From Candidatus Omnitrophota bacterium (GTDB lineage Bacteria > Omnitrophota > Gorgyraeia > Gygaellales > Profunditerraquicolaceae): 34,571 nucleotides of DNA. Every line of letters starts with the position of its first letter. Within the stretch, counting starts at the first letter, position 1. The DNA is taken from NCBI GenBank assembly GCA_025453445.1, contig JALOQJ010000007.1:1-34571 (forward strand). Reading direction: 5' to 3'. The translations under genes and the position numbers were made by a program. A model generated the notes under the pieces. The model was not told the DNA's origin and made no database searches. It worked only from the letters and a program-made list of their open reading frames with translations. Positions 1 through 17,196 of the stretch are shown here, in pieces.

Positions 1-59
1 TCCTTTCTGGTTTTTGGTTTGTCCAAACTAATTATACCAAAAAGGCTAACATGATCCCG

Positions 60-300
60 TTTTACTTCCAATATGTCAACACATCTCCGAGCGAGTTCAG
101 CTTGGCTGTGTTTTTGCGGGATCTTGGAAGCCCCGAGCGGGCACGGTGTCCCCCGCGATAATCTTATTTGGGACGAGCGAGGCCGAGGAGCCGAGCGCGA
201 TTTTTCACGCTGGGAAAAATCGTGCGTTCCTGCGAGAATACGCCTCGGCAGGACCCGCGACATCTCATGAGCGAGAAAATGCGGCGGATTCATTAAAGAA
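60..300. repeat. GC-rich structured intergenic element, possible interspersed repeat
   Basis: The stretch holds nested inverted repeats. Bases 198-206 (CGATTTTTC) pair perfectly with 214-222 (GAAAAATCG) across a 7-nt loop. Outside this, 182-188 (GCCGAGG) pairs with 243-249 (CCTCGGC), and 228-233 pairs with 248-253. An 8-bp palindrome (CTCATGAG) lies near 265-272. Forms of CGAGCG recur several times. Base composition differs from the flanks. This could be a dispersed repeat, a structured RNA or the remnant of a small mobile element. A second copy in the genome is needed to call it a repeat, and none is visible in this window. Confidence 0.35.
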
Positions 301-380: not shown

Positions 381-1595
381 ATGGATAAACGTATAGTTAT
401 TACAGGAATAGGGGTTATTTCTTCGATTGGTATTGGCAAGGATGAATTCTGGAAGGCCCTGATAGCAGGCAAATCAGGGATTTCTGAGATTACTTCTTTT
501 GATACCTCGGCTTTTCCTACTCATAGAGGCGGAGAAATTAAAAATTTTCAGCCGGAATTGTTTATGCATAAAAGAAGGGCGAGGACTTCAGGTCGTACTT
601 CCCAGCTGGCTGTAAGTTGCGCTAGGCTTGCCCTTTTTGACTCCGGTATTAAATCAGATAATTTAGATACGGAAAAGACCGGCGTTATTCTCGGCACAAC
701 AATGGGAGAGTCTGCTGTTTTTCAGAAACTTAATGCAGCATGGTTAAAAGATGGCGAGCAGGCAGTAGATGCGCAATCAGTTTTTTATTGCCAGGCCAAT
801 GTTTTGTCTTCGAGTGTTGCAATTGAACTAAAATTAAAGGGCCCTAATTATGTCATTCCCACTGCTTGTGCTGCAGGAAACTATGCTATCGGCTATGCCT
901 ATGATTTAATCAAGATGGGCAAAGCAGATATTATGTTTGCCGGAGGAGCGGATGGTTTTTCCAAACTTGCTTTTACCGGTTTTAACCGTCTCTTTGCTAT
1001 TGCTCCGGAAATCTGCCAGCCATTTGATAAAAATAGGAAAGGTATGATGGTTGGTGAGGGCGCAGGAATAGTAATCTTGGAAACTCTAGAGAGCGCATTA
1101 AAGCGCAAGGCAAATATCTATGCGGAAATCTTAGGCTATGGCTTAAGTTGCGATGCGCACCATATGACTGCGCCTGATGCAGACGGTATTGCTTCTGCAA
1201 TAGAAAAAGGGTTGTATGGGGGCGGTATCAGTATCAATGATGTTGATTATATCAGCGCGCATGGCACAGGCACACCGGCAAATGATAAGGCAGAATGCAC
1301 TGCTATGCGGAAAGTTTTTGGTGAGAGGCTTAAAGAAATCCCTGTTAGTTCAATAAAATCAATGTTAGGCCATACAATGGGTGCGGCATCGGCAATTGAA
1401 GCGATTGCCTGTTGCTTGGCATTGAAAGATGGGTTGTTACCGCCTACGATTAATTATGCAACTTTAGATGAAGATTGTAATATTGATTGTGTTCCTAATC
1501 TTAGCCGCAGGAAAGAAATAGAAGTTGCTCTGAATAATGCCTCGGCGTTCGGCGGAAATAATGCTTCTTTAGCGCTTAAAAAGTTTCTGCTTTAG
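381..1595 (+). CDS. Beta-ketoacyl-ACP synthase II-like protein (first FabF paralogue)
   Basis: A condensing enzyme that would join a malonyl-ACP unit to an acyl chain in the cytoplasm. The protein is 404 aa, the usual FabF length. The thiolase-fold catalytic triad is complete: Cys163 in TACAAG, His294 in AHGTGT and His331 in GHTMGAA. I start at ATG 381, which gives the normal FabF N-terminus MDKRIVITG; a GTG six bases upstream is in frame, but the AGGTG before 381 fits better as a ribosome site. The gene has its own promoter and lies outside the fab operon, among accessory genes (acyltransferase, hydrolase, CrtI-like oxidoreductase). This suggests a specialised lipid or polyketide role rather than housekeeping synthesis, which the fabF at 17197 can serve. 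It overlaps the opposing gene tail-to-tail by 27 bp. Function class is firm; substrate is unknown. Confidence 0.9.
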   Translation: MDKRIVITGIGVISSIGIGKDEFWKALIAGKSGISEITSFDTSAFPTHRGGEIKNFQPELFMHKRRARTSGRTSQLAVSCARLALFDSGIKSDNLDTEKTGVILGTTMGESAVFQKLNAAWLKDGEQAVDAQSVFYCQANVLSSSVAIELKLKGPNYVIPTACAAGNYAIGYAYDLIKMGKADIMFAGGADGFSKLAFTGFNRLFAIAPEICQPFDKNRKGMMVGEGAGIVILETLESALKRKANIYAEILGYGLSCDAHHMTAPDADGIASAIEKGLYGGGISINDVDYISAHGTGTPANDKAECTAMRKVFGERLKEIPVSSIKSMLGHTMGAASAIEAIACCLALKDGLLPPTINYATLDEDCNIDCVPNLSRRKEIEVALNNASAFGGNNASLALKKFLL

Positions 1596-2741
1596 GTGTT
1601 TCTTTTCCTTTTCTTCCTCAATTTCCCTTAGTGTAGAATCGATATTTTTCGGCTCAATCCATTTTGCTGTCAGCCTGACTAGGGTGTTTAGCAGGGGATT
1701 AAAGGCCTTGGCATAAATATAAAGCGGGATAAGTTTTGCTCCTAGCCTGATTTTCGGGTAGTAGTCAGTAGTCCCGGGCTGGTAATAATGAATACCATTC
1801 TTGATACACCAGTCAAAATTATAGCAGAAGGTGGTAAAATAGAGATGGTATTTACGAGCCAGGTTTTTATCGAAGCCAATAAATTTGTCGATAAATAAAT
1901 CATTCTCAACGAAGCAAAGATTAAATGCCACTATTTTATTTTTATCGTGGGTAATGAAAAATTTTGCTACTCCAGGCATATTCCGGCAGATATTTTTGAA
2001 GAATTCAGGGGTGAGGGTTTCAAAGCGTACGTCTGCGTCTGTAAAGTTATTCAGGTAAAGCTCATATATTCTGTCAATAATATCATCGATATTTTCGCGA
2101 ATTTCTGTCTTTAGCTCTGTTTGCTCCGCAGATCTTCTTAATTTACGCTTGATATCTTTGCGCATATTTTTACTTAAAGAAGCCAAATATTCTTCAAGCG
2201 ATTTAGCTTTAATTTCAATCATTGTTGTAGCCAGGCTTTCCATGCGGATAAAATTTCTTCTCATAAGGGCCTGTCCGAGGAATTTATTTTTGCTGGAAAG
2301 ATTATTGAAGGCAACTGTGCTTACTTTGTTTTCTTTAGCAAATTCATAAATTCTCGGCAGTGCTTTATTCAGAAATGCCCCGAGGTCTTCATGCCTGGCA
2401 ATACCGAAATAGAATTCTTCAGTAGTAGGCGAGCCTAAAAAAAGGACTTTCATGCATAAGAATCTCTTTAATTTGAAAAGCCATTTGTGTATCGGGCCGG
2501 GGATCAGCGTGTCCAGGGAAAAATTCATGATAAAAAAAGGAATGATTACCCTGATTTTGCTATTACGTTCTCCTATTAAGTAGCCGAAAGAAAATTCTTT
2601 TAAATGGGCCTCTTCAATATTGCGGTGGTATCCGTAGCCTTCGATAGGATTGGCACTAAAAAGATTATCCCAGTCTTTTCTGGGTATGTCCCGGATAGTG
2701 TCAACAATAGTGAAGGTAAGAGGGGCTTTTGATTTTCGCAT
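1569..2741 (-). CDS. FemAB/GNAT-like N-acyltransferase (CelD/BioF2-type)
   Basis: The protein is 390 aa and lacks a signal peptide or clear membrane segment. The middle carries a basic stretch, SLSKNMRKDIKRKLRR at about residues 190-206, typical of the FemAB/peptidoglycan-bridge and CelD-like GNAT superfamily, where it precedes the second GNAT domain. The C-terminal half has the aromatic-rich pattern of that domain (FDWCIKNGIHYYQPG). Such proteins transfer acyl or aminoacyl groups to amino groups of envelope precursors; the exact reaction cannot be read here. The C-terminal tail is a charged Glu/Lys helix. It is transcribed divergently from the alpha/beta hydrolase and overlaps the KAS gene convergently by 27 bp. 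The start at 2741 has no good Shine-Dalgarno sequence, but a promoter lies immediately upstream. Superfamily likely; precise family moderate. Confidence 0.7.
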   Translation of the reverse strand: MRKSKAPLTFTIVDTIRDIPRKDWDNLFSANPIEGYGYHRNIEEAHLKEFSFGYLIGERNSKIRVIIPFFIMNFSLDTLIPGPIHKWLFKLKRFLCMKVLFLGSPTTEEFYFGIARHEDLGAFLNKALPRIYEFAKENKVSTVAFNNLSSKNKFLGQALMRRNFIRMESLATTMIEIKAKSLEEYLASLSKNMRKDIKRKLRRSAEQTELKTEIRENIDDIIDRIYELYLNNFTDADVRFETLTPEFFKNICRNMPGVAKFFITHDKNKIVAFNLCFVENDLFIDKFIGFDKNLARKYHLYFTTFCYNFDWCIKNGIHYYQPGTTDYYPKIRLGAKLIPLYIYAKAFNPLLNTLVRLTAKWIEPKNIDSTLREIEEEKEKKHLKQKLFKR

Positions 2742-2749
2742 ATTTTCTC

Positions 2750-2778
2750 AGTATAACAGAAAGCTCAATGCGTCACAA
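2750..2778 (-). promoter_or_regulatory. Promoter for the FemAB/GNAT-like gene, near-leaderless
   Basis: On the minus strand, TTGTGA (2778-2773) and TATACT (2755-2750) are 17 bp apart. Only 8 nt separate the -10 box from the ATG, so transcription would begin at or next to the start codon. Confidence 0.5.
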
Positions 2779-2806
2779 TAATAAAAATGTTGTTTTTTTA
2801 ATTTTG

Positions 2807-2815
2807 TGCTATAAT
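2807..2815 (+). promoter_or_regulatory. Extended -10 promoter for the alpha/beta hydrolase
   Basis: TGC followed by a perfect TATAAT (2810-2815) makes an extended -10 element; no good -35 box is visible. The ATG at 2826 is 10 nt downstream, leaving a predicted leader of about 4 nt and no Shine-Dalgarno sequence. Confidence 0.5.
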
Positions 2816-2825
2816 ATTCGGCATT

Positions 2826-3662
2826 ATGAGTTTTAACAATTCTAAGAAATATAATTTTTTGCTTGAGGGCAATAACGGAAAAGCAGTGCTTTTAATCCAC
2901 GGAATTACCGGCACGCCTTCTGAGATGCGCCATGTGGGCAAAGTATTGAATAAGGCAGGTTATACTGTTTTTTGTAGTGCCCTGCCGCGGCACTGCAGCA
3001 GCCTGGGTGAATTGAAGAAAGTTACCTGGCAGGAAATTGCCGATGCCTGCAAAGAAGATTTTTTGGCGCTTAAAGCTAAGCATGAGAAGGTTTTTATCGC
3101 TGGCCTTTCCATGGGCGCTTTAATGAGTATCCATCTTGCCTATCAATACCCGCAAGAAGTCAGCGGTATTGCTGTGCTTGCGCCGACAATATTCTATGAT
3201 GGCTGGGCACTACATAAGGGTAAGGTTTTTCTAAACTTTGTCTGGAATATACCTTATCTGCGCAACAGGATAAATATCCGTGAAGGCTGGCCGTATGGCC
3301 TAAAAGATGAAGATTTGAGATGGAGCATCGAAAGATTCTATAAAGATGCCAATGCTAATAAATTCAGCAATAAAGTGCTTTTATTCGGCAGCCCGTTTTT
3401 CCCCTTAGCAAATCTTTATCAGCATAATCTTTTTACAAAATTAGTGATTAAAGAATTGAAAAAAGTAACTACCCCTGCAGTTATCATTCATGCGAAAGAA
3501 GACGATATGACCAGCCTTAAGAACGCCCGTTTTGTGCTGGACAATATTGGCTCGCCCAATAAATCCCTGGTTGTCCTTGAAGACAGCTACCATATGATTA
3601 CCATTGATAAAGAAAAAGACCGGGTCGCTGAGGAAATCATCAGTTTTTTTAATAAACTATAA
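2826..3662 (+). CDS. Alpha/beta hydrolase, carboxylesterase/monoacylglycerol lipase-like
   Basis: A 278-aa single-domain serine hydrolase that would cleave an ester or thioester, with no signal peptide, so probably cytoplasmic. The oxyanion-hole motif LIHGITG is near residue 24; the nucleophile elbow GLSMG holds Ser95; Asp226 or Asp227 lies in HAKEDD; His256 lies in SYHMITID. This spacing matches the Est30-type carboxylesterases. It sits directly ahead of the CrtI-like oxidoreductase with an 8-nt gap, so the two are probably co-transcribed. A role in releasing or trimming acyl groups made by the nearby KAS is an inference from position. Enzyme class is sure; substrate unknown. Confidence 0.85.
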   Translation: MSFNNSKKYNFLLEGNNGKAVLLIHGITGTPSEMRHVGKVLNKAGYTVFCSALPRHCSSLGELKKVTWQEIADACKEDFLALKAKHEKVFIAGLSMGALMSIHLAYQYPQEVSGIAVLAPTIFYDGWALHKGKVFLNFVWNIPYLRNRINIREGWPYGLKDEDLRWSIERFYKDANANKFSNKVLLFGSPFFPLANLYQHNLFTKLVIKELKKVTTPAVIIHAKEDDMTSLKNARFVLDNIGSPNKSLVVLEDSYHMITIDKEKDRVAEEIISFFNKL

Positions 3663-3669
3663 TTTTGAA

Positions 3670-5169
3670 ATGAAACAATATGATTGCCTTATCATCGGAG
3701 CAGGTATTGGAGGGTTAATTTCAGCGTTGAAATTATCTTCCGTTGGCAAGAAAGTCCTGCTTTTGGAAAAACAGCCTGTAGCGGGAGGTTTTGGCACTTC
3801 TTTCAGCCGTAAGGGTTTTACTTTTGAGTCTTCTTTGCATTGCGTTGATGCTTTGGCTGAAGGTGGCGAAATAAGGCAATTCCTGCAGGAATCGGGTATC
3901 GAAAATAAAGTTAAGTTTATTGAATTAAAGGATTTCTGCCGCATTATTTATCCTGAGCATGATTTTGTCGCTGATTTCAATAGCGATAATTTGCAGAATT
4001 TTCTTAAAAATAATTTTCCTGCCGAAGCAAAAAATTTAGATAAGCTTTTTTCTGAATTTAGCGGGTTTTATCGCCAGTTTGACCGTTTCTATTATTCTAA
4101 GTTGCCGGCATGGCTTAACCTGATGCTTTGCCCATTTATTTCCCCTAAAATAATCAAAATGTCGTTGTTTGCTACCGGGGAGGTGATTAATAGATATATA
4201 AAGGATGAAAAACTCCGGGGTATGCTTGGCGATATCTGGCGTTTTATCGGGCTGCCTCCGGAAGAGCTTTCTGCGTTCTATTTTCTGATAGTTTTCAGGG
4301 GGTATTTTTATAATCCTACTGTTTATGTGCAGGGCGGCTACAACCGGATTTTTCAGGCGATAGTTGAGAAAATTAGGGAGAATGGCTCTGAAGTAAAATT
4401 GAGTACTACGATTGAAAAAATTATTACTTGTAATGGCGCGGTGAGGGGCGTAATTACGGAAAAAGAGGAAGAATTTACTGCACCGGTAGTTATTTCTAAT
4501 GCCAATGCTATTAGTACGCTTACTGAATTATTGGATAATCAGTCTGTCAGGGAAATATATAAGAAAAAATTATCTTGTCTGAAAAAATCTATATCCGCTT
4601 TTCAGGTATATCTTGGGCTTCGATTTCCTGCAAAGCAATTGGGCATGAGTAATTTCATGTATTCTTTAAATAGTACATATAACCACAACGATAACTTTAA
4701 ATACAGCCTTGAAGGTAATTATCAGTTTTGTCCTTTGTCGCTGGTTGATCATGCTCAGGTTGATTCATCGCTCGTGCCCGAAGGAAAAGGAAGCCTGTTG
4801 ATTATGGCTCTGGATAGTTATTTTAATTGGAATAGTTTAACAGATGAAGAATACAGGCAGAAAAAGATAGAAGCAGCTCAGCAATTAATTAACCGTGCAG
4901 AAAAATATTTACCCGGGTTAAGTAGCAATATTGAAGTAATGGAAATAGCTTCTCCTCGTACTATGGCGCATTACGGTGTATCTCCTGAAGGGGCTATTTA
5001 CGGATTTAGCCAGACAGTAAAGCAGGCAAGTATTAATCGCCTGCCCCAGAAAACTGTAATCAAAGGTTTAATTTTAGCCGGGGCCTGGACTCAGCCCGGC
5101 GCAGGCGTGCATGGTTGTTTTGTTTCAGGAATTGATGCTGCAAATTTAGCTTTGAGCCAGTTAAGGTAA
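3670..5169 (+). CDS. CrtI/phytoene desaturase-like FAD-dependent oxidoreductase
   Basis: 499 aa from ATG 3670. An upstream in-frame start at 3604 would overlap the hydrolase gene and add 22 residues before the flavin fold, so I reject it. The N-terminus has the dinucleotide-binding motif GAGIGG (Gly10, Gly12, Gly15) followed by LLEKQPVAGGFGTSF, as in CrtI-type desaturases and retinol-saturase-like enzymes. The C-terminus has the family's closing FAD motif, LILAGAWTQPGAGVHG followed by SGIDAA. Such enzymes desaturate, saturate or isomerise long isoprenoid or acyl chains, often at the membrane. No phytoene synthase or other carotenoid gene is in view, so a lipid substrate is as likely as a carotenoid. 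A TATAAT overlaps the stop codon of the previous gene 6 nt before the ATG, with no clear -35 box. Family sure, substrate open. Confidence 0.85.
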   Translation: MKQYDCLIIGAGIGGLISALKLSSVGKKVLLLEKQPVAGGFGTSFSRKGFTFESSLHCVDALAEGGEIRQFLQESGIENKVKFIELKDFCRIIYPEHDFVADFNSDNLQNFLKNNFPAEAKNLDKLFSEFSGFYRQFDRFYYSKLPAWLNLMLCPFISPKIIKMSLFATGEVINRYIKDEKLRGMLGDIWRFIGLPPEELSAFYFLIVFRGYFYNPTVYVQGGYNRIFQAIVEKIRENGSEVKLSTTIEKIITCNGAVRGVITEKEEEFTAPVVISNANAISTLTELLDNQSVREIYKKKLSCLKKSISAFQVYLGLRFPAKQLGMSNFMYSLNSTYNHNDNFKYSLEGNYQFCPLSLVDHAQVDSSLVPEGKGSLLIMALDSYFNWNSLTDEEYRQKKIEAAQQLINRAEKYLPGLSSNIEVMEIASPRTMAHYGVSPEGAIYGFSQTVKQASINRLPQKTVIKGLILAGAWTQPGAGVHGCFVSGIDAANLALSQLR

Positions 5170-5175
5170 GAAGTA

Positions 5176-5562
5176 TTAGGCGTTACTGTAGGTCAAGAGA
5201 ATTATCCCGATTACGATAAAAAACGTTCCCACCCACCGCCACAATCCAACTTTTTCTTTCAGGAAGATTCTTGAGGTCAGGGCAATCAGGATATAATGCA
5301 TGCTGTCTGCGGAAAAAGCAAAGTTTAAGTCAGCCTTGGAGAGAGCAAATAGCCAGACTATTAAAGAAGCGCAGCAGAATAAAAATCCCAGCCAAATTTT
5401 TGGCATAAAAAGCAATTTAGCAATAAAATAGAAGGCTTTTTTAATGCTGTTAACGTTTGATTCAAGGGAATTTATGGAGGTTTTTAATAACAGTTGGTTA
5501 ACTGTATCAAAAACACTGGTAAGAAATATCAGGAATATTATAAAAAGTACGTTTGCTTTCAT
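5176..5562 (-). CDS. SMR/EamA-type half-transporter, second of a pair
   Basis: 128 aa with four predicted membrane segments (about residues 4-24, 42-70, 80-100 and 108-125), the layout of small multidrug resistance proteins and of ArnE/ArnF. The motif ALSKADLNFAF matches LSKIDLSVAV in its partner, so the two are related halves. An acidic residue in helix 1 (Asp in SVFDTVNQ) is near the position of the EmrE Glu14 site. The start codon overlaps the stop of the upstream partner by 4 bp (ATGA), which indicates translational coupling and suggests a heterodimer. ArnE/ArnF flip a lipid-linked aminosugar; that role is a possibility here, not shown. The gene ends 6 bp from the convergent CrtI-like gene. 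Confidence 0.75.
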   Translation of the reverse strand: MKANVLFIIFLIFLTSVFDTVNQLLLKTSINSLESNVNSIKKAFYFIAKLLFMPKIWLGFLFCCASLIVWLFALSKADLNFAFSADSMHYILIALTSRIFLKEKVGLWRWVGTFFIVIGIILLTYSNA

Positions 5563-5975
5563 TGGGTGCTTACCTTACTTTTTCCCGAACTCATCGAAAC
5601 AAAGACTACCCCGACAAGAATGAAAAATATGCCTGTCCAATCAAGGAACGTCATTACTTCGTGTAGGAAATAAATTGATACCAAAGGTACCAAAATATAG
5701 CTGAAGCTGGCGATAGGTACAGCTACGCTTAAATCTATCTTAGAAAGTACCGTAGACCAGAGGACAAAGGTTAAAAACACGAAAATAAAACCAAGCCAGA
5801 GATAAGGAGAAAAAACTAAAGGTTTCATAAAGGCGATTGTGTCGCCAAGATTCTTGAATGTGAAACTGCTCTGTAGCATCGCGCTTTTCTTAAAAAAGAA
5901 TTGCGTGAGAGTTTCAAAAATATCCGTTGCCACCAGGAATAATAATATTTTTAGGGTAACTCTTCTTTTAGACAT
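5559..5975 (-). CDS. SMR/EamA-type half-transporter, first of a pair
   Basis: 138 aa from the ATG at 5975, which is preceded by AAGGAAA at proper spacing. The open frame continues upstream to 6077, but that extension overlaps the start of the divergent aminotransferase and lacks a ribosome site. Four membrane segments are visible. Helix 1 carries DIFETLTQFFFKKS with a central Glu, similar in position to the EmrE proton/substrate residue, and helix 3 follows LSKIDLSVAVPIASFSYI. Co-transcribed with its paralogue (4-bp overlap), it probably forms an ArnE/ArnF-like heterodimer in the inner membrane. It is divergent from a DegT/ArnB-family aminotransferase. Transported substrate unknown; drug export is an alternative. 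Confidence 0.75.
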   Translation of the reverse strand: MSKRRVTLKILLFLVATDIFETLTQFFFKKSAMLQSSFTFKNLGDTIAFMKPLVFSPYLWLGFIFVFLTFVLWSTVLSKIDLSVAVPIASFSYILVPLVSIYFLHEVMTFLDWTGIFFILVGVVFVSMSSGKSKVSTQ

Positions 5976-5984
5976 TTTATTTCC

Positions 5985-6013
5985 TTGATTGAGCATACAT
6001 TTTAGCATAAAAT
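5985..6013 (+). promoter_or_regulatory. Candidate promoter for the DegT aminotransferase
   Basis: TTGATT (5985-5990) and TAAAAT (6008-6013) are 17 bp apart, about 35 nt before the ATG at 6049. The element overlaps the leader of the divergent transporter gene, so the two units may affect each other. Confidence 0.4.
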
Positions 6014-6048
6014 GAATTTTACGAAAGGAATATTTAATAAATCTTAGA

Positions 6049-7263
6049 ATGAGCATATTCAGGGAGATTCCCCCCACAGCCGGCCTGCCGATTTACCTTA
6101 ATGATATATTGTCTCTATTTGCACCTGTAAGACAATCTTTAGAGGATGATTTTAAGAAATATCTCGGAGTGAGTTTTGCGAAAGTTACTTATTCCGGCAC
6201 TGCTGCATTTTATCTGATCCTCGAAGGACTGAAGGAATTATCATCTAAGAGGACGGTAATTATCCCTGCATATATATGTCCATTGGTACCTTTGGCAATT
6301 AAAAGAGCAGGATTAAAGATAGAGATATGCGATATAAATAAAAACAATTTTAATTTTGACCTAGCTGCTTTAGAAGAATTGTGTGCTTTAAATGATGATA
6401 TTTTAGCTGTGGTTCCGGTGCATCTGGCAGGGATCCCGCTTGAATTTCAAGAATTAGAAAAAGTTTGCCGTGATAATGGTATATTTATTATCGAAGATTG
6501 TGCGCAGAGCTTAGGTGCATTATATCAAGGTAATAAGGTTGGGGCACTCGGCGATTTTAGTTTTTTCAGCCTTTGCCGCGGTAAAGGCCTGACGATTTAT
6601 GAAGGAGGAGTAATTGTTGCAAATAAAAAAGAATATGCCCCTATAATTGAACGTGCTTTTAGGAAGCTGGCCAATGACGATATTTTTTCCGAAATGATAA
6701 AAGTACTGGAATTATTCGGATACTGGATTTTTTACCGGCCTGCTCTTTTTTGGTTTATCTTCCGCCTGCCGCAATTATTTTGGAATTTACAAGGTAATCA
6801 ATTTAGAGCTAATATCGAATATTTTGAAATTAATTTTCCCCTGCATAGTGTATCTGAATTCAGGAAGAAAATTGCTCATAATGGTATCCTTCGCTTGGAC
6901 GCGGAAATTATTGGCCAAAGGCAAAGAGCTCATTACTATCTGGAAAATTTAAGAAAAATTCCCGGGATAACAGTAGTGGATGAGCCGGCAGCTGGCCAGG
7001 CAACCTTTCCGTTTGTTACTCTGATTTTTTCTGAAAGCCACCAAAAAGAAAAAGCGCTAAAAAATTTTGAAAAATCCGGGCTGGGTGTATCGCAAATATA
7101 TGAGTTGGCGATTACAGGCTATGATTATTTAAAAGAGATGCTTCCGGATAAAATATACCCTAATGCCGCTTATCTGGCAGAACGGGCAGTAACCTTATCC
7201 ACCAGTACTTTTATGCACGAAAAAGATTTAGATGCAGTTTTAAATATAATAAAAAAATTATGA
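6049..7263 (+). CDS. DegT/DnrJ/EryC1/StrS-family PLP aminotransferase
   Basis: A 404-aa sugar-aminotransferase-type enzyme (fold type I). Family marks are the N-terminal REIPPTAG start, the SGTAAF phosphate-binding turn near residue 49, the VVPVHLAGIP strand, the cofactor aspartate in IIEDCAQSLG, and Lys179 in CRGKGLTIYEGG as the Schiff-base lysine. These enzymes transaminate ketosugars attached to nucleotides; ArnB is one example. Substrate cannot be told from sequence. The region between about residues 215 and 260 is rich in aromatic residues (YWIFYRPALFWFIF) and may form a membrane-associated insertion unusual for the family. The gene is divergent from the SMR pair and lies 46 nt before the PagL-like gene. 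No good Shine-Dalgarno sequence precedes it. Confidence 0.85.
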   Translation: MSIFREIPPTAGLPIYLNDILSLFAPVRQSLEDDFKKYLGVSFAKVTYSGTAAFYLILEGLKELSSKRTVIIPAYICPLVPLAIKRAGLKIEICDINKNNFNFDLAALEELCALNDDILAVVPVHLAGIPLEFQELEKVCRDNGIFIIEDCAQSLGALYQGNKVGALGDFSFFSLCRGKGLTIYEGGVIVANKKEYAPIIERAFRKLANDDIFSEMIKVLELFGYWIFYRPALFWFIFRLPQLFWNLQGNQFRANIEYFEINFPLHSVSEFRKKIAHNGILRLDAEIIGQRQRAHYYLENLRKIPGITVVDEPAAGQATFPFVTLIFSESHQKEKALKNFEKSGLGVSQIYELAITGYDYLKEMLPDKIYPNAAYLAERAVTLSTSTFMHEKDLDAVLNIIKKL

Positions 7264-7271
7264 AAATTTAT

Positions 7272-7300
7272 TTGACAAAATATAAATGCCTAACTATAAT
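7272..7300 (+). promoter_or_regulatory. Perfect-consensus sigma70 promoter, leaderless
   Basis: TTGACA (7272-7277), a 17-bp spacer and TATAAT (7295-7300) match the housekeeping consensus at 12 of 12 positions. The ATG at 7310 is 9 nt after the -10 box, so the transcript would start about 0-3 nt before the codon. An in-frame ATG at 7286 lies inside the promoter and cannot be the start of this transcript. Confidence 0.85.
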
Positions 7301-7309
7301 AAACACAAT

Positions 7310-7993
7310 ATGAAAGCAAAAACTTTAAAAATATTTTTAGCACTATTTTGTGCTGTTTGTTTTTCAGGCAATTATTGCTTTGCGGATGAAGTTGCACAGC
7401 CTGTTGCACAGCCTGTTGTGCAGGAAGCTGCTCAGCAGCAGGAATTGGCTATGCAAAAAGAAGAAGCAAAGAAAAGTATTTTTTCCAGTATAGATGTACT
7501 CAGCGGTTATGCCTGGTCAAAACTTAAGGCAAAAAGCGATATGGAATTAAAACGCGATTATGATTTTTATCCTGTTTTTGTGGGATTAGGTTTTAACCTG
7601 AAAAACCTGACTAAACGAATCGGTTTTAATCCTCCGGTAACTTTTGAATTTCAACTTGAACCTTATGTTGCTTATGTTTCAAGTCCTGATGCCAATGTGG
7701 AATTCGGCAATTCTTTTTTGCTGAAATTAGGGCTTGTGCCTGAGAATTGGAAGTTGCAGCTTTATGCCAAGGCAGGCGTTGGTGTGTCATATATGACTAA
7801 TCATACCTGGGAACAATCCACGCAATTCAATTTTATCGAAAGCGGGGGCTTGGGAGCAAAGTATTTTCTTACCAAAAATTTCGCTTTGATTGCTGAAGGC
7901 CGCATGCGCCATCTTTCTAATGCCGGAGTAAAACAGCCTAATCACGGAATTAATACCTATTTTGCTTTGGCAGGTGTTTCCTACAAATATTAA
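7310..7993 (+). CDS. PagL-like acyloxyacyl hydrolase (lipid A 3-O-deacylase family), outer membrane
   Basis: 227 aa. Residues 1-26 form a signal peptide (Lys-rich start, hydrophobic core, FADE boundary). A short Gln/Ala/Val linker follows, built from a 12-bp direct repeat (VAQP, VAQP, VVQE). The rest reads as an eight-stranded beta barrel ending in the aromatic SYKY typical of outer membrane proteins. The PagL active-site motif is present: His201 and Ser203 in RHLSNAG, followed by QPNHGIN. The third catalytic residue of Pseudomonas PagL, a Glu about 12 residues after the Ser, is not seen; Asn215 is close to that place. The family removes the 3-O-linked acyl chain of lipid A. The start is set by the promoter. 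Family fairly sure; activity uncertain. Confidence 0.8.
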   Translation: MKAKTLKIFLALFCAVCFSGNYCFADEVAQPVAQPVVQEAAQQQELAMQKEEAKKSIFSSIDVLSGYAWSKLKAKSDMELKRDYDFYPVFVGLGFNLKNLTKRIGFNPPVTFEFQLEPYVAYVSSPDANVEFGNSFLLKLGLVPENWKLQLYAKAGVGVSYMTNHTWEQSTQFNFIESGGLGAKYFLTKNFALIAEGRMRHLSNAGVKQPNHGINTYFALAGVSYKY

Positions 7994-8035
7994 TTAAGCC
8001 CTTCCTTCTAATTAATCAATCCTGTAAATTAAAAT

Positions 8036-8989
8036 ATGTTAAATATCGGTTCATTAAAATTATCTTCCAATGTAATCCTTGCTCCTATGGCCGGGATTAC
8101 GGATTTGCCTTTTCGTATGCTAAACCGCCAATTTGGCTGCGAGCTGGCGTTTGTAGAGATGATCAATGTGCGTTCTATCAGTTATAAAAGCAAGAAGACT
8201 GCGCATATGCTTTCTACGAAGCGCACAGACCGGCCGTTGGGCATACAAATATTAGGCTTAGAGGAGAAGTTTATCCGTCGGGCAATAGATATCTTAAAAA
8301 AATATAAATTTGATCTTTTAGATTTTAATGCTGCTTGTCCGGCAAAAAAAGTAGTGCGCCGCGGCGAGGGCGCAAGCCTGATGCGCCAGCCAAAAAAAAT
8401 ACAGAAGTTATTAAAAATAGTAGTGGAAGATTCTCTTTGGCCGGTGAGTATAAAGATCCGTGCTGGTTGGGATAAGGATTCGGTAAATGCTAAAGACATA
8501 GCATTGGCAGCAGAAGATGCAGGGGTAAGCGCTGTATTTATCCACGGCCGGACAAAATTGCAGGAATATAGCGGCAGCGTAGATTATAAAATAATCAGGG
8601 AAGTGAAAAAGGCTGTGCATATTCCGGTTATTGGAAGCGGGGATGTTTTGTCCGCTCAGCTGGCCAAGCAAATGCTTACTGAAACCGGCTGCGACGGAAT
8701 AGCAGTGGCGCGGGGCGCTTTAGGCAATCCCTGGATATTCCGGGAAATCGCTGAATTTTTAGAAAGCGGACAAATTATTCTCCGCCCCAGCCACGAAGAA
8801 ATAGTTTCTGTGATGCGGGCGCATCTGGAATCATGCATTGATTTTTACGGTGAGCACAGCGCTGTGGTAATTTTCCGCAAATTTTTTGCATGGTACACCA
8901 GAGGGTTTAAAAAAATCAGGCCCCTGAGAGAAAAATGCTGCCGTGTAAAGTCAAAAGAAGAGGTGCTTAAGGTATTTGCAGAATTGTAA
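8036..8989 (+). CDS. dusB: tRNA-dihydrouridine synthase
   Basis: Reduces uridine to dihydrouridine in the tRNA D-arm, using FMN. The 317-aa protein is of normal length and starts LSSNVILAPMAGITDLPFR, the FMN-binding first strand of the TIM barrel. The active-site Cys101 lies in NAACPAKKVVRRGEGASLM; most family members have a Gly before this Cys, so the Ala is a mild variant. HGRT and IGSGDV near residues 178 and 200, and ARGALGNPWIF near 228, are the FMN phosphate-binding parts. The DusB subgroup is the usual one in such bacteria, but A/B/C subtype is inferred. No Shine-Dalgarno sequence is seen. The gene ends 20 nt before the BatD-like gene. Confidence 0.93.
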   Translation: MLNIGSLKLSSNVILAPMAGITDLPFRMLNRQFGCELAFVEMINVRSISYKSKKTAHMLSTKRTDRPLGIQILGLEEKFIRRAIDILKKYKFDLLDFNAACPAKKVVRRGEGASLMRQPKKIQKLLKIVVEDSLWPVSIKIRAGWDKDSVNAKDIALAAEDAGVSAVFIHGRTKLQEYSGSVDYKIIREVKKAVHIPVIGSGDVLSAQLAKQMLTETGCDGIAVARGALGNPWIFREIAEFLESGQIILRPSHEEIVSVMRAHLESCIDFYGEHSAVVIFRKFFAWYTRGFKKIRPLREKCCRVKSKEEVLKVFAEL

Positions 8990-13004: not shown

Positions 13005-13205
13005 GTGGCACTACCTAAACGAAGGCATTCAAGCGCGCGCGGCAGAAGGCGCCGTACTCATTGGAAAATAGCGAAAACTAGTTTAAGTACCTGTCCTCAA
13101 TGCAAACAGCCGAAATTACCGCATCAGGTCTGTAAGATTTGCGGTTATTACGCAGGTAAGCAGGTAATTGAGGTTAAGGCAAAAGAAAAGAAGAAAAAGA
13201 AATGA
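13005..13205 (+). CDS. rpmF: 50S ribosomal protein L32
   Basis: 66-aa ribosomal large-subunit protein with a GTG start and a strong AAAGGAG (12992-12998) 6 nt upstream. The N-terminus MALPKRRHSSARGRRRR is characteristic. The four-cysteine form (CPQC then CKIC) binds zinc, so this is the C+ paralogue type. The last bases overlap the plsX start by 4 bp. The yceD-rpmF-plsX-fab order is widely conserved and couples ribosome and membrane lipid synthesis. Confidence 0.96.
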   Translation: MALPKRRHSSARGRRRRTHWKIAKTSLSTCPQCKQPKLPHQVCKICGYYAGKQVIEVKAKEKKKKK

Positions 13206-14197
13206 AAATAATTATTGATGCTATGGGCGGCGATCATGCGCCGCAGGTTACAGTAGATGGCGCATTGGCAGCAATCAAGGAAATTAACGCCGATATTGTC
13301 CTTGTAGGGGATGAAGCGCGCATTGAATCTCTGTTGCAAAGAGCCAGATATCTAGGAGATAGAATTTCCATTCATCCGGCTTCTGAAGTTATTGAAATGC
13401 ATGAATCGCCTGCTACCAGTGTGCGTAGGAAAAGAAATTCTTCTATAGTGGTTGGTGTGGATCTGGTGAAAAAAGGCGTTGGCGATGCTTTTGTAAGCGC
13501 CGGCAATACCGGCGCCATTGTATGTGCTGCAACTTTAGGTTTGGGCCTATTGCCGGGCATTGAAAGGCCGGGTATTTCCATTATGACCCCTACTTTAAAA
13601 GGTTCGGCTTTAATCGTTGATGTCGGGGCAAATATTGATCCAAAACCTGTACAGTTACTACAATACGCGATTATGGCCAAGGCTTATTGCGAAGGTGTGC
13701 TTAATAAAACTAATCCTAGCGTCGGGCTGTTGAACGTCGGAGAAGAAGAGGGTAAGGGTACGGATTTTCTGAAGGAAACATATGAGCTGCTTTCCAAGGC
13801 ACCGATTAATTTTATCGGTAATGTGGAAGGCAAGGCTCTTTTTTCGGGTGTCTGCGATATTATTGTCTGCGATGGTTTTATCGGTAATGTTGCCCTGAAA
13901 GTGACCGAAGGCGCGGCTGAAGCAATGCAGGTGTTTTTAAAGCGCCATCTTTTAAGAAGTAATTTCTTGGGTAAACTTGGGTTGGTTTTATTGAAACCAA
14001 CATTGATAAAATTTAAAAATGATTTGGATTATTCGGAATACGGCGGAGCGCCGCTATTAGGAGTTAACGGCGTAGTAATCAAAGGGCACGGCCGTTCGAA
14101 TGCCAGGGCAATTAAGAATGCGATTAAAGCTGCGGCCACAGAAGTTGAACGGCATGTTAATCAGAAAATTTTAGAGACGCTCAATTCCCTTAAATAA
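13202..14197 (+). CDS. plsX: Phosphate acyltransferase PlsX
   Basis: Makes acyl-phosphate from acyl-ACP for the PlsY step of phospholipid synthesis, at the inner face of the membrane. 331 aa, the standard length. It begins MKIIIDAMGGDHAPQVTVDG and has the conserved SAGNTGAIV near 98, LIVDVGANIDPKP near 138, NVGEEEGKG near 177 and the C-terminal YGGAPLLGVNGVVIKGHG. Translationally coupled to rpmF by a 4-bp overlap; fabH follows after 4 nt. Confidence 0.97.
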   Translation: MKIIIDAMGGDHAPQVTVDGALAAIKEINADIVLVGDEARIESLLQRARYLGDRISIHPASEVIEMHESPATSVRRKRNSSIVVGVDLVKKGVGDAFVSAGNTGAIVCAATLGLGLLPGIERPGISIMTPTLKGSALIVDVGANIDPKPVQLLQYAIMAKAYCEGVLNKTNPSVGLLNVGEEEGKGTDFLKETYELLSKAPINFIGNVEGKALFSGVCDIIVCDGFIGNVALKVTEGAAEAMQVFLKRHLLRSNFLGKLGLVLLKPTLIKFKNDLDYSEYGGAPLLGVNGVVIKGHGRSNARAIKNAIKAAATEVERHVNQKILETLNSLK

Positions 14198-14201
14198 GAC
14201 G

Positions 14202-15179
14202 ATGAAAAAAGTAGGCATAATTGGAGTAGGAGAGTATCTGCCCAAGAAAGTGTTGACAAATGCTGACTTGGAGAAAATGGTAGATACTTCTGACGAATGG
14301 ATTACTACCCGCACCGGAATTAAAGAGAGGCATTTAGCAGCTAAGGATGAAGCAGCTTCGGATCTGGCAATAAAAGCAGGCCAAAGTGCTTTGGAGGATG
14401 CTAAACTAAAGGGTGAAGATTTAGATTTAATTATTATTGCTACGATTTCTCCTGATATGCAAACTCCTGCCACTGCCTGCATTGTGCAGAATGCCTTAGG
14501 CGCAAAAAAAGCAATTTGTTTTGATATTTCTGCTGCTTGTGCAGGTTTTGTTTATGCTTTAACCGTTGCTCAGCAGTTCATCGCCCGCGGCAGCTGTAAA
14601 AATGCTTTGGTTATCGGTACGGAAATCTTGTCTTCTATTACCGACTGGAAAGATAGAAATACTTGTGTTCTTTTTGGTGATGGTGCGGGTGCTGCAATAT
14701 TGTCAGAAGTAAAATCCGGCGGGATAATCGCAAGTTACTTAGGCGGCAACGGATCAATCTATGATATCCTGATGGTGCCTGCTGGCGGCTCAAAGATGCC
14801 TGTTTCTCAGGAAACTCTGGATAAACGGCTGCATTTTTTAACCATGCGCGGCAACGAACTTTTTAAAATTGCCGTTAAAGCCATGCATGATGCTGCTTGC
14901 GTAGTTTTGGAACGCGCCGGATTAAAGGCAGAAGATGTGGATTTGGTTATTCCGCATCAGGCTAATGTACGTATCATTATGGCGGTAGCAAAAAAGCTGG
15001 GTTTTACCGAAGATAAAATTTATTTGAACATCGAAAAATGCGGGAATATGTCTTCTGCTTCTACTGCTACGGCATTATGCGAAGCAGTAAAGGAAGGTAA
15101 GATTAAAAAAGGCGATATTGTTCTTTTAGATGCTTTTGGAGCAGGTTTGGTTTGGGGCGCTTGTGTTATAAAATGGTGA
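14202..15179 (+). CDS. fabH: 3-oxoacyl-ACP synthase III
   Basis: Starts fatty acid synthesis by condensing acetyl-CoA (or a branched starter) with malonyl-ACP. 325 aa. The catalytic triad is Cys113 (SAACAGF), His252 (PHQANVR) and Asn282 (GNMSSAS). The last motif usually reads GNTSAAS, a mild variant. DTSDEWITTRTGIKERH near residue 29 is the family hallmark. It ends in a region shared with a short palindromic repeat that also forms the fabD start. Confidence 0.96.
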   Translation: MKKVGIIGVGEYLPKKVLTNADLEKMVDTSDEWITTRTGIKERHLAAKDEAASDLAIKAGQSALEDAKLKGEDLDLIIIATISPDMQTPATACIVQNALGAKKAICFDISAACAGFVYALTVAQQFIARGSCKNALVIGTEILSSITDWKDRNTCVLFGDGAGAAILSEVKSGGIIASYLGGNGSIYDILMVPAGGSKMPVSQETLDKRLHFLTMRGNELFKIAVKAMHDAACVVLERAGLKAEDVDLVIPHQANVRIIMAVAKKLGFTEDKIYLNIEKCGNMSSASTATALCEAVKEGKIKKGDIVLLDAFGAGLVWGACVIKW

Positions 15180-15195
15180 GCTTATCGAACCATGA
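15173..15195. repeat. Short palindromic repeat at the fabH-fabD junction
   Basis: ATGGT (15173-15177) and ACCAT (15189-15193) flank an 11-bp centre containing GAGCTTATCGA. The sequence resembles, from memory, a TGAGCTTGTCGAA-type interspersed motif found in many bacterial genomes. It contributes the fabH stop and the fabD start codon. Confidence 0.5.
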
Positions 15196-16105
15196 AATAG
15201 TAGGATTTCTCTTTAGCGGCCAAGGCAGCCAATATATAGGTATGGGCAAGGATTTATATGAAACCTTCTCTGAAAGCCGGGTAGTTTTTGAAAAGGCAGA
15301 AGAAGTTTTAGGTTTTGACCTTAAGGCACGCTGTTTTGAAGGCCCTCAGGATTTGCTTAAGCTTACCAGCGTTTCTCAACCAGCTATCCTTGCTGTCAGT
15401 ATTGCTGCTTTTGCAGCATTCAGGGTTAAAATTAATGTTATGCCGGCTTATGCTGCAGGGTTAAGCTTGGGAGAATATACTACTTTAGTTGCCGCTGAAT
15501 GTCTTACTTTGGAAGAAGGTATCAAGCTGGTAAGAAAAAGAGGCGAAATCATGGAGCAGGCAGCAACGCGCGCTCCCGGGAAGATGGCCGCAGTCCTGGA
15601 ATTGCCTTTAGAAAAATTAAAAGAGATTTGTGTTCTTTCTGACGCAGAGATAGCAAATTTAAATTCTCCGGTACAGGCAGTTATTTCCGGTAAAGCCGAA
15701 GCAGTAGAGAAAGCCATGGATTTATGCAGCAAAGCAGGCGCAAAACGAGTGATTGCTCTGGAAGTAAGCGGTGGTTTTCATTCCTCGCTGATGTTAGAAG
15801 CAGCTAAGGAGTTAAGGGCTGTTTTAGATAAGACGCAATTTTCTCCGCCTGTTTTTCCTGTTGTCAGCAATTATAGCGCAGGCATGGAAAATACCGTTCA
15901 GGAAATAAAAGATAATTTAGAGCGCCAGATGTATTCTCCGGTGCGCTGGGAAGAATCGATGAGGTTCATGTTATCTAAAGGGGTGAAGAAATTTTATGAG
16001 TTTGGCCCGGGCAGGGTCTTAAAAGGATTGATGCGTAAGATTGACCCGCAGGCTGAAGTGATTGCGATAGAGAGAAAAGAAGATTTAATTAATCTGGTGA
16101 GGTAA
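15173..16105 (+). CDS. fabD: Malonyl-CoA:ACP transacylase
   Basis: Loads malonyl groups on ACP. 310 aa from ATG 15173. The nucleophile is Ser98 in GLSLGEY; nearly all FabD proteins have His before this Ser, and here it is Leu97, which is odd. The partner His203 lies in GGFHSSLM, and the oxyanion-side GQGSQ motif is near residue 15, so the enzyme is likely active. The first residues, MVSLSNHE, are encoded by a repeat-like palindrome (15173-15193) and are not part of the usual FabD start, which would begin near VGFLFSGQG. It overlaps fabH by 7 bp and ends 2 nt before fabG. Confidence 0.94.
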   Translation: MVSLSNHEIVGFLFSGQGSQYIGMGKDLYETFSESRVVFEKAEEVLGFDLKARCFEGPQDLLKLTSVSQPAILAVSIAAFAAFRVKINVMPAYAAGLSLGEYTTLVAAECLTLEEGIKLVRKRGEIMEQAATRAPGKMAAVLELPLEKLKEICVLSDAEIANLNSPVQAVISGKAEAVEKAMDLCSKAGAKRVIALEVSGGFHSSLMLEAAKELRAVLDKTQFSPPVFPVVSNYSAGMENTVQEIKDNLERQMYSPVRWEESMRFMLSKGVKKFYEFGPGRVLKGLMRKIDPQAEVIAIERKEDLINLVR

Positions 16106-16107
16106 AT

Positions 16108-16851
16108 ATGAGGTTTAAAGGAAAAGTAGTTTTGGTAACAGGCAGTGCGCAGGGCATTGGCAAAGAGATTGCTTTAAGTTTCGCCCGGGAAGGGGCGGAT
16201 GTAGTTATCAGTGATATTAACTTGGAAAGAGCAGCTGCAACCAGCCGCGAGATAGAAGCTTTAGGCAATAAGTCTATGGCAGTAGAGCTGAATGTGGCTG
16301 ACTTTGCGAAAGTTGAGGAAGCGATAAACAAAATTCTTGACAAATTCGCAAAGGTTGATATATTAGTTAACAACGCTGGCATCACCAAGGACAATTTAAT
16401 GCTGCGCATGGGTGATGCGGACTGGGATGCGGTAATAAATGTTAATTTAAAAGGTACATTTAATTGTACCAAAGCCGTATCCCGGCCGATGATGAAACAG
16501 CGTTATGGTAAGATTGTCAATATTGCTTCGATCATTGGCATAATCGGAAACGCAGGCCAGGCAAATTATTCCGCCAGTAAAGCAGGAATAATTGCCCTGA
16601 CGAAGACTACGGCAAAAGAATTCTCCAGCCGCAATATTAATGTTAACGCCGTAGCACCGGGATTTATCCAGACCGAGATGACTGCTAAGCTTTCTGAGGA
16701 AGTAAAGCAGAAAATGCTTGAGCTGATCCCGATGAATAAACTAGGGCTGCCATTAGATGTGGCAAATGTATGTTTATTTTTAGCGTCCGATGAAGCAAAC
16801 TATATTACAGGCCAGACTATTGTAGTGGATGGCGGAATGGTTATGGCATAA
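16108..16851 (+). CDS. fabG: 3-oxoacyl-ACP reductase
   Basis: NADPH-dependent ketoreduction in the elongation cycle. A 247-aa short-chain dehydrogenase with the cofactor motif TGSAQGIG near residue 11, NNAG near 88, and the catalytic set Ser141, Tyr154 and Lys158 (YSASK). The C-terminal PGFIQTEMT and [12 protein letters not shown] are typical FabG. It sits between fabD and acpP in the usual order. Confidence 0.96.
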
Positions 16852-16867
16852 CGCGCGAGTGTATTAC

Positions 16868-16875
16868 AAAGGAGG
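16868..16875 (+). promoter_or_regulatory. Very strong Shine-Dalgarno sequence of acpP
   Basis: AAAGGAGG, a near-perfect complement to the 16S rRNA 3' end, lies 8 nt before the acpP ATG. It is the strongest ribosome site seen in the window, in keeping with the high level of ACP needed. Confidence 0.8.
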
Positions 16876-16883
16876 AAAAAAGA

Positions 16884-17123
16884 ATGGCAGCACAAGATAA
16901 GGTTAAATCAATAATCGCAGAACAGTTGGGTGTTAAGCCGGAAGAGGTTACTTCCGAGGCGTCATTTGTTGATGACTTAGGCGCAGATTCATTAGATACC
17001 GTAGAGTTGGTTATGGCCTTAGAAGAAGAATTCGGTATCGAAATACCTGATGAGGATGCGGAAAAAATTGCTACAGTAGGTGATGCAATTAAATATATCG
17101 AAGAAAAAGCAGGTAACAAATAA
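16884..17123 (+). CDS. acpP: Acyl carrier protein
   Basis: 79 aa, acidic, carrying growing acyl chains on a phosphopantetheine arm. Ser36 in [18 protein letters not shown] is the attachment site. The downstream helix EEKAG closes the four-helix fold. Production is favoured by a strong ribosome site; a hairpin follows the gene. Confidence 0.97.
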
Positions 17124-17149
17124 ACGATATATTAAATATATAGTTTTGC

Positions 17150-17183
17150 TTACCCCGCCTTTTAAGCTGGCGGGGTAAATTTT
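17150..17183 (+). terminator. Hairpin between acpP and fabF (terminator or attenuator)
   Basis: TTACCCCGCC (17150-17159) pairs perfectly with GGCGGGGTAA (17169-17178) over a 9-nt loop, followed by a short, interrupted T stretch (ATTTTG). The weak T tract suggests partial termination or mRNA-end protection, raising acpP transcript over the genes behind it. Confidence 0.65.
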
Positions 17184-17196
17184 GTTAAGGGTAATA

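What the first reader, a model, noticed from the sequence alone, without database searches (positions are those of the whole stretch)
381..7993. Possible envelope lipid or glycolipid remodelling locus
Adjacent genes encode a second ketoacyl synthase, a FemAB/GNAT-like acyltransferase, a serine hydrolase, a CrtI-like FAD oxidoreductase, an ArnE/ArnF-like transporter pair, an ArnB-family (DegT) aminotransferase and a PagL-like deacylase. Chain synthesis, chain redox, amino-group addition, flipping and lipid A deacylation are plausible steps of a single envelope modification. I do not recognise this exact set as a described system. Several strand changes mean it is not one operon.
Basis: inference. 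Interest (0 to 1): 0.6.

Follow-up and report, generated by a model that had tools for sequence, protein, structure and literature searches.

The report
Ladderane-type acyl synthase with aminolipid genes
In an uncultured Omnitrophota bacterium, these genes are half of a conserved locus that probably builds an unusual unsaturated fatty chain, with machinery closely related to that suspected of making ladderane lipids in anammox bacteria, and joins it to an amino head group for the cell envelope.

Summary
The gene list is real, and the neighbourhood is conserved. The window is contig C54 of a 1.29 Mb Omnitrophota genome, cut at position 1 beside a dispersed repeat. The missing upstream half almost certainly lies at the end of contig C7: HAD, class-III aminotransferase, ureohydrolase, CLF, KR, ACP, FabZ. 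In one relative (G035) nearly the whole set, in the same order, lies on one contig.

The 'second ketoacyl synthase' is the KS of a KS/CLF pair. It and its CLF group with a solved KS/CLF pair whose residues identify it as Kuste3605/3606, from the candidate ladderane locus of the anammox bacterium Kuenenia. KS, CLF, ACP, FabZ and a CrtI-like enzyme are shared with kuste3603-3608; its radical SAM enzyme is absent. KR has no counterpart there.

FemAB, hydrolase, EmrE pair and DegT belong with HAD, class-III aminotransferase and ureohydrolase to a module that relatives carry even without KS/CLF. Best reading: an amino-headed envelope lipid, with a polyene-type acyl supply added in some lineages. 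The product is inferred. The arn assignment fails; PagL lacks its catalytic Glu. antiSMASH 'ladderane' calls in Omnitrophota are already published, so this is a new variant of a known kind.

The parts
1..300 (.). Start of contig C54, with dispersed non-coding repeat sequence at about 100-182 and 232-297; explains why the assembly breaks here
   Evidence: 15 further matches elsewhere in the genome; contig C7 ends in a related repeat family
381..1595 (+). KS: catalytic ketoacyl synthase of a KS/CLF pair (Cys-His-His triad intact)
   Evidence: Pfam ketoacyl-synt; triad against the inactive CLF; best PDB match 9s5h_B, 508 bits vs 368 for the next; tree
1569..2741 (-). FemAB-like double-GNAT transferase; 3' end overlaps that of the KS gene by 27 bases
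   Evidence: PF04339 and PF13480; AlphaFold model pLDDT 88, fold of FemX, streptothricin Sbb17 and the MprF soluble domain
2826..3662 (+). Alpha/beta hydrolase (GLSMG nucleophile elbow), candidate thioesterase or lipase
   Evidence: PF12146; motif; 59-70% identical in relatives, directly before the CrtI-like gene
3670..5169 (+). CrtI-like FAD oxidoreductase or isomerase
   Evidence: PF01593 and crtI_fam below cut-off; model pLDDT 93, best fold match gamma-carotenoid desaturase 4rep
5176..5562 (-). EamA/EmrE-type small membrane protein, subunit B
   Evidence: always beside subunit A in relatives
5559..5975 (-). EamA/EmrE-type small membrane protein, subunit A (start placed by comparison with relatives; the longest ORF begins at 6077)
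6049..7263 (+). DegT-family PLP aminotransferase (Lys in SLCRGKGLTIYEGG)
   Evidence: PF01041 154 bits; orthologue in 43 of 108 family genomes
7272..7300 (+). Perfect sigma-70 consensus TTGACA-17-TATAAT just before the PagL-like gene
7310..7993 (+). PagL-like outer-membrane beta-barrel (ORF from 7286); catalytic His and Ser kept, Glu replaced by Asn
   Evidence: PF09411 63 bits vs cut-off 23

Best explanation
The region is the downstream half of a conserved Omnitrophota biosynthetic locus; the upstream half lies at the right end of contig C7. Shown: (1) a KS/CLF pair, a FabG-type reductase, a dedicated ACP and a FabZ-type dehydratase form an iterative type II elongation core of the anammox ladderane-candidate type, with no enoyl reductase or radical SAM gene in the cluster; (2) a CrtI-like flavoprotein is tied to that core; (3) FemAB, hydrolase, the EmrE-type pair, DegT, a class-III aminotransferase, an arginase-like ureohydrolase and a HAD phosphatase form a second conserved module, which relatives also carry without KS/CLF/CrtI. 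Inferred: the core builds a chain on its ACP with several double bonds retained; the CrtI-like enzyme isomerises, desaturates or reduces it; the aminotransferases, ureohydrolase and phosphatase make an amine head group; the FemAB-like transferase joins acyl (or aminoacyl) and amine; the hydrolase trims or releases; the EmrE-type pair flips the product. The PagL-like protein is a frequent outer-membrane companion, perhaps not a deacylase. The net product would be an amino-headed envelope lipid with an unusual unsaturated chain.
For: C7 carries HAD, class-III aminotransferase, ureohydrolase, CLF, KR, ACP, DH and stops 256 bases after DH; C54 starts with KS. G035 has HAD, ureohydrolase, CLF, KR, ACP, DH, KS, FemAB, ABH, CrtI, EmrB, EmrA, DegT, PagL in that order on one contig. 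CLF has lost Cys and both His; KS keeps them. Best PDB matches: KS and CLF to 9s5h B and C; ACP to 7auf, 7qv0_D and 9s5i_E; FabZ to 7qv0. 9s5h_C shows the eight residues that PMC2649909 Table 2 lists for Kuste3606. Tree: all cluster KS group with 9s5h_B (97/90), and the CLFs with 9s5h_C are one clade (100/100). In KS-less relatives the module has its own FemAB and usually its own ABH; in most KS-carrying relatives with a separate module it lacks them. Co-occurrence counts. LpxC is in the genome.
Against: No product, expression or knock-out data. The C7-C54 join rests on synteny, not on sequence overlap. DegT and its module occur in 27 genomes without the CrtI-like gene, so the two halves are separable. 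G042, G046 and G065 depart from the simple picture of where FemAB sits. The CrtI-like enzyme could remove the double bonds. FemAB and ABH substrates are unknown. Co-occurrence p-values ignore shared ancestry.
Confidence: 0.5

Rival explanations
1. Two independent loci that happen to lie together in a few genomes: a ladderane-type acyl cluster (CLF to CrtI) for an ordinary membrane lipid or pigment, and an unrelated amine module (HAD to EmrA) for a polysaccharide or lipid A sugar.
For: In most relatives the two sit at different places, and the module occurs without the acyl cluster. PagL and DegT are only weakly associated (p 0.03). In several relatives the CrtI-like gene is followed by RsmD, not by the module.
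Against: FemAB and ABH are shared between them in a largely complementary way: in the module when KS/CLF is absent, in the acyl cluster when it is present. 20 of 22 CrtI-like carriers have the class-III aminotransferase. The nested arrangement recurs in G000, G026, G035 and L092.
Confidence: 0.3
2. The acyl cluster makes a membrane-bound polyene pigment or antioxidant of the aryl-polyene or ishigamide kind rather than a structural lipid.
For: KS/CLF, KR, DH and ACP without an enoyl reductase is the make-up of highly reducing type II PKSs; ishigamide KS 6kxd is the second-best match and the next clade out.
Against: KS is not in the clade of 6smo (a ketosynthase that I know as the aryl-polyene one), and no aryl starter gene was recognised. 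The cluster travels with FemAB, hydrolase and flippase-like genes.
Confidence: 0.2
3. An arn-like lipid A modification (aminoarabinose type) with PagL deacylation.
For: DegT plus two EmrE-type proteins plus a PagL-like barrel; LpxC is present.
Against: ArnB, ArnE and ArnF cut-offs all failed; no other arn-like gene recognised in the module; the catalytic Glu of PagL is absent; KS/CLF and CrtI are unexplained.
Confidence: 0.05

Closest known systems
kuste3603-3608 locus of Kuenenia stuttgartiensis (candidate ladderane genes; PMC2649909, PMC4790861)
   Same: KS (3605-like), CLF-like non-canonical FabF (3606-like), ACP (3603-like; double-Phe motif in C7 and most family members), FabZ (3604-like) and a CrtI-like flavoprotein (3607-like); KS and CLF group together in trees
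   Different: No radical SAM gene (kuste3608); a dedicated FabG-type KR, FemAB, hydrolase, and the amine and flippase-like module are added. Whether the CrtI-like genes are orthologous to kuste3607 was not tested
antiSMASH 'ladderane' gene clusters in non-anammox phyla, Omnitrophota included (PMC9902471)
   Same: Omnitrophota MAGs were already flagged there as carrying, and expressing, ladderane-like clusters
   Different: That paper gives, in the text read, no gene-level anatomy, no KS/CLF pairing, and no link to FemAB, DegT or EmrE genes
Highly reducing type II PKSs (ishigamide Iga11/Iga12 6kxd, aryl polyene ApeO/ApeC; PMC8358021)
   Same: KS/CLF, KR, DH, ACP and no enoyl reductase in the cluster
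   Different: Separate KS clade; other tailoring genes
FemX, streptothricin Sbb17 and MprF transferase domains
   Same: Double-GNAT fold of the FemAB-like protein
   Different: 8-14% identity; substrate unknown; no membrane flippase domain of the MprF kind

Membership tests
Anammox ladderane-candidate (kuste3603-3608-type) cluster | KS with intact triad paired with a KS-fold partner lacking Cys and both His, Glu in place of the second His | tested here: met
   Table 2 of PMC2649909
Anammox ladderane-candidate (kuste3603-3608-type) cluster | KS and CLF group with the anammox pair to the exclusion of FabF and aromatic PKS ketosynthases | tested here: met
   KS 97/90, CLF clade 100/100
Anammox ladderane-candidate (kuste3603-3608-type) cluster | Dedicated ACP with a double-Phe motif | tested here: met
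   FF in C7 and in 8 of 12 cluster ACPs of the family; FV, FI or FM in the other four
Anammox ladderane-candidate (kuste3603-3608-type) cluster | FabZ and CrtI-like flavoprotein in the cluster | tested here: met
Anammox ladderane-candidate (kuste3603-3608-type) cluster | Radical SAM enzyme in the cluster | tested here: not met
   none among the cluster genes of C7, C54 or the family loci read
Anammox ladderane-candidate (kuste3603-3608-type) cluster | Ladderane lipids produced | not testable with these tools
   needs lipid analysis
Highly reducing type II PKS (polyene) | KS/CLF, KR, DH and ACP without enoyl reductase in the cluster | tested here: met
Highly reducing type II PKS (polyene) | Polyene product | not testable with these tools
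   needs reconstitution
Housekeeping FabF | TIGR03150 curated cut-off | tested here: not met
   438.7 vs 493.75
CrtI phytoene desaturase family (TIGR02734) | Curated cut-off | tested here: not met
   172.3 vs 238.1
Arn (aminoarabinose) pathway | ArnB, ArnE and ArnF curated cut-offs | tested here: not met
   81.7 vs 631; 31.5-35.0 vs 92; 30.1-36.5 vs 99
PagL lipid A 3-O-deacylase | Pfam PagL gathering score | tested here: met
   63.0 vs 23
PagL lipid A 3-O-deacylase | Catalytic His, Ser and Glu (triad from established knowledge of PagL) | tested here: not met
   His and Ser kept; the Glu aligned in 2erv is Asn here and Asn or Asp in all homologues read

The most novel reading that the evidence does not exclude
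Omnitrophota use a ladderane-type KS/CLF system, without the radical SAM partner, to make a polyunsaturated or otherwise unusual acyl chain that is amide-linked to a dedicated amine head group and flipped to the outer envelope: a new class of bacterial amino lipid that shares the elongation enzymes of the unsolved ladderane pathway.
Probability: 0.3. Interest if true: 0.8.

Novelty: new variant of a known kind. Interest (0 to 1): 0.56.

Why it matters
How ladderane lipids are made is unsolved, and expression of the anammox candidate genes in E. coli gave no new product (PMC4790861). A natural version of the same KS/CLF/ACP/FabZ/CrtI set without the radical SAM gene, coupled to an identifiable transferase and amine module, separates the chain-building step from the ring-forming step and makes it directly testable. 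It also gives a gene-level reading of the 'ladderane' clusters that antiSMASH reports in non-anammox phyla, and a candidate envelope lipid for a phylum about whose membranes little is known.

Tried and rejected
Overlap of contig ends C7 and C54: no shared word of 12 bases; both ends lie in dispersed repeats, whose arrangement elsewhere neither proves nor excludes the join. Arn pathway: rejected on cut-offs. Housekeeping FabF duplicate: rejected on tree and triad partner. Carotenoid biosynthesis: CrtI cut-offs failed and the partners are acyl-chain genes. Search for the window-type locus outside Omnitrophota: CrtI-like relatives in other phyla are 36% identical or less, with no conserved KS/CLF/FemAB/ABH neighbourhood. 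Wider phylum: CLF in 95 of 384 genomes, but other families mostly carry other gene sets. Enoyl reductase: FabK absent from the genome; FabI and other types not tested. Rfam: nothing in the window. No paper describing PDB entry 9s5h was found in the library.
Full report
What the window is. The window is the whole of contig C54 (34,571 bases) of a 1.29 Mb genome in 57 contigs, 93% complete. Its relatives are titled Candidatus Omnitrophota.

Observation. All named genes are there; coordinates are corrected under 'parts'. Names hold at superfamily level only. ArnB, ArnE, ArnF, CrtI and FabF models all fall below their curated cut-offs.

The missing half. A search of the genome with the KAS found seven KAS-fold genes. 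One, at the right end of contig C7, lies in the series HAD phosphatase, class-III aminotransferase, arginase-like ureohydrolase, KAS-fold gene, FabG, ACP, FabZ, and the contig stops 256 bases after FabZ. In relatives this series continues directly into the KAS gene with which C54 begins: G026, G035, G070, G071 and others. In G035 the order HAD, ureohydrolase, CLF, KR, ACP, DH, KS, FemAB, hydrolase, CrtI, EmrB, EmrA, DegT, PagL is on one contig. The contig ends share no overlap but both lie in dispersed repeats. Adjacency is therefore inferred, with high confidence.

A KS/CLF pair. The window KAS keeps Cys, His and His; the C7 protein has Phe, Ala and Glu in their place, the mark of a chain-length-factor-like partner. 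The closest solved structures are chains B and C of one complex, 9s5h: 508 bits for the KS (next best 368) and 432 for the CLF (next best 279). The PDB file gives no organism. However, 9s5h_C has Val, Asn, Tyr, Gly, Lys, Glu, Gln and Arg at exactly the eight positions that Table 2 of Rattray et al. lists for Kuste3606 of the anammox bacterium Kuenenia (PMC2649909). I conclude that 9s5h is Kuste3605/3606 or a close homologue; this is an inference. The ACP and FabZ also match 7auf, 7qv0 and 9s5i best, which I take from memory to be anammox proteins; the 7auf ACP shows the double Phe described for an anammox ACP (PMC9821293). A maximum-likelihood tree puts all Omnitrophota cluster KS with 9s5h_B (97/90), then ishigamide KS 6kxd, apart from FabF and aromatic-type KS; the CLFs with 9s5h_C form one clade (100/100). 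Kuenenia kuste3603-3608 is ACP, FabZ, FabF, non-canonical FabF, phytoene-desaturase-like and radical SAM (PMC4790861). The Omnitrophota locus has all of these types except the radical SAM, plus a KR.

Two modules, one shared pair. Among 108 family genomes, CrtI orthologues occur in 22 and CLF in 33, both in 21. DegT occurs in 43, and all 43 have the class-III aminotransferase; 41 have a FemAB. Reading 20 DegT neighbourhoods shows HAD, aminotransferase, ureohydrolase, DegT, EmrA and EmrB together in varying order and orientation. In relatives without KS/CLF/CrtI (G018, G069, G075, G094) the module also contains a hydrolase (40-42% identical to the window's) and a FemAB (34-37%). In most relatives that have both a KS cluster and a separate module (G048, G012, G022, G070, G011, G068, G031, G051) the module lacks these two, and the KS cluster holds them. 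Exceptions are recorded: G042 and G065 have FemAB in the module, G074 has the close FemAB elsewhere without CrtI, and G046 keeps the module without FemAB or hydrolase although its KS cluster also holds both. In G000, G026, G035 and L092 the KS cluster sits inside the module. The simplest reading is one pathway whose transferase and hydrolase are always needed and whose special acyl supply is optional. Fisher tests (CrtI with DegT p 5e-4; DegT with aminotransferase 3e-18) ignore shared ancestry and are only a guide.

Enzymes. The FemAB-like protein models well (pLDDT 88) and has the double-GNAT fold of FemX, the streptothricin ligase Sbb17 and the soluble MprF domain: transfer of an aminoacyl or acyl group to an amine or hydroxyl. 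The CrtI-like protein models as a carotenoid desaturase fold. HAD is MtnX-like above its subfamily cut-off; the aminotransferase is class III without an assigned substrate; the ureohydrolase passes Pfam Arginase, and its metal-ligand motifs read as kept (sequence). The PagL-like barrel has His and Ser but Asn at the Glu position, as do its homologues (Asn or Asp), and a perfect consensus promoter lies just before its likely start. LpxC is in the genome, so lipid A is probably made.

Mechanism. Shown: gene content, conservation, loss of the catalytic residues in CLF, kinship with the anammox pair, absence of radical SAM and enoyl reductase genes from the cluster. Inferred: retained double bonds, action of the CrtI-like enzyme on the chain, amine head group, joining by FemAB, flipping by the EmrE pair.

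Known or new. antiSMASH 'ladderane' clusters were reported in, and expressed by, Omnitrophota MAGs of the Cariaco Basin, with unknown function (PMC9902471). What I did not find in the library is this anatomy: the KS/CLF pairing with the anammox enzymes, and the tie to a FemAB, DegT and EmrE module. The library is partial. I rate it a new variant of a known kind.

Noticed in passing
L039 (G000 contig C47, 1-18969), KS 7371-8633 and CLF 6140-7378: A third KS/CLF pair with ACP, a polyketide-cyclase-like SRPBCC protein, a PF04199 cyclase, an SDR, an MFS exporter, and a B12-type radical SAM gene split in two frames: looks like an aromatic-type type II PKS in a 1.3 Mb Omnitrophota genome. Its KS matches actinorhodin KS best and groups with 6smo and 1tqy.
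   Followed up: partly
L038 (G000 contig C10), 6794-16127: A second ladderane-type KS/CLF/ACP cluster with an acyl-ACP-reductase-like protein, a thioester-reductase-like SDR, a GMC oxidoreductase, a nitroreductase and another CrtI-like enzyme; related sets recur in other Omnitrophota families.
   Followed up: partly
window 100-182 and about 15 further places in the genome: A dispersed non-coding repeat of about 50-80 bases, often near a second related repeat arm as at the end of C7; it breaks the assembly.
   Followed up: partly
window 7272-7300: A 12-of-12 sigma-70 consensus promoter only about 10 bases before the likely start codon of the PagL-like gene (7310), which would leave an almost leaderless transcript.
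   Followed up: no
L199, L201, L206, L209, L214, L215: Omnitrophota loci of other families with CLF, KR and DH but no close KS beside them, among other conserved unlabelled genes.
   Followed up: no
window 13202-18447: Ordinary housekeeping fatty acid genes (plsX, fabH, fabD, fabG, acpP, fabF); in many relatives the KS/CLF cluster sits between recG and rsmD, close upstream of this operon.
   Followed up: partly
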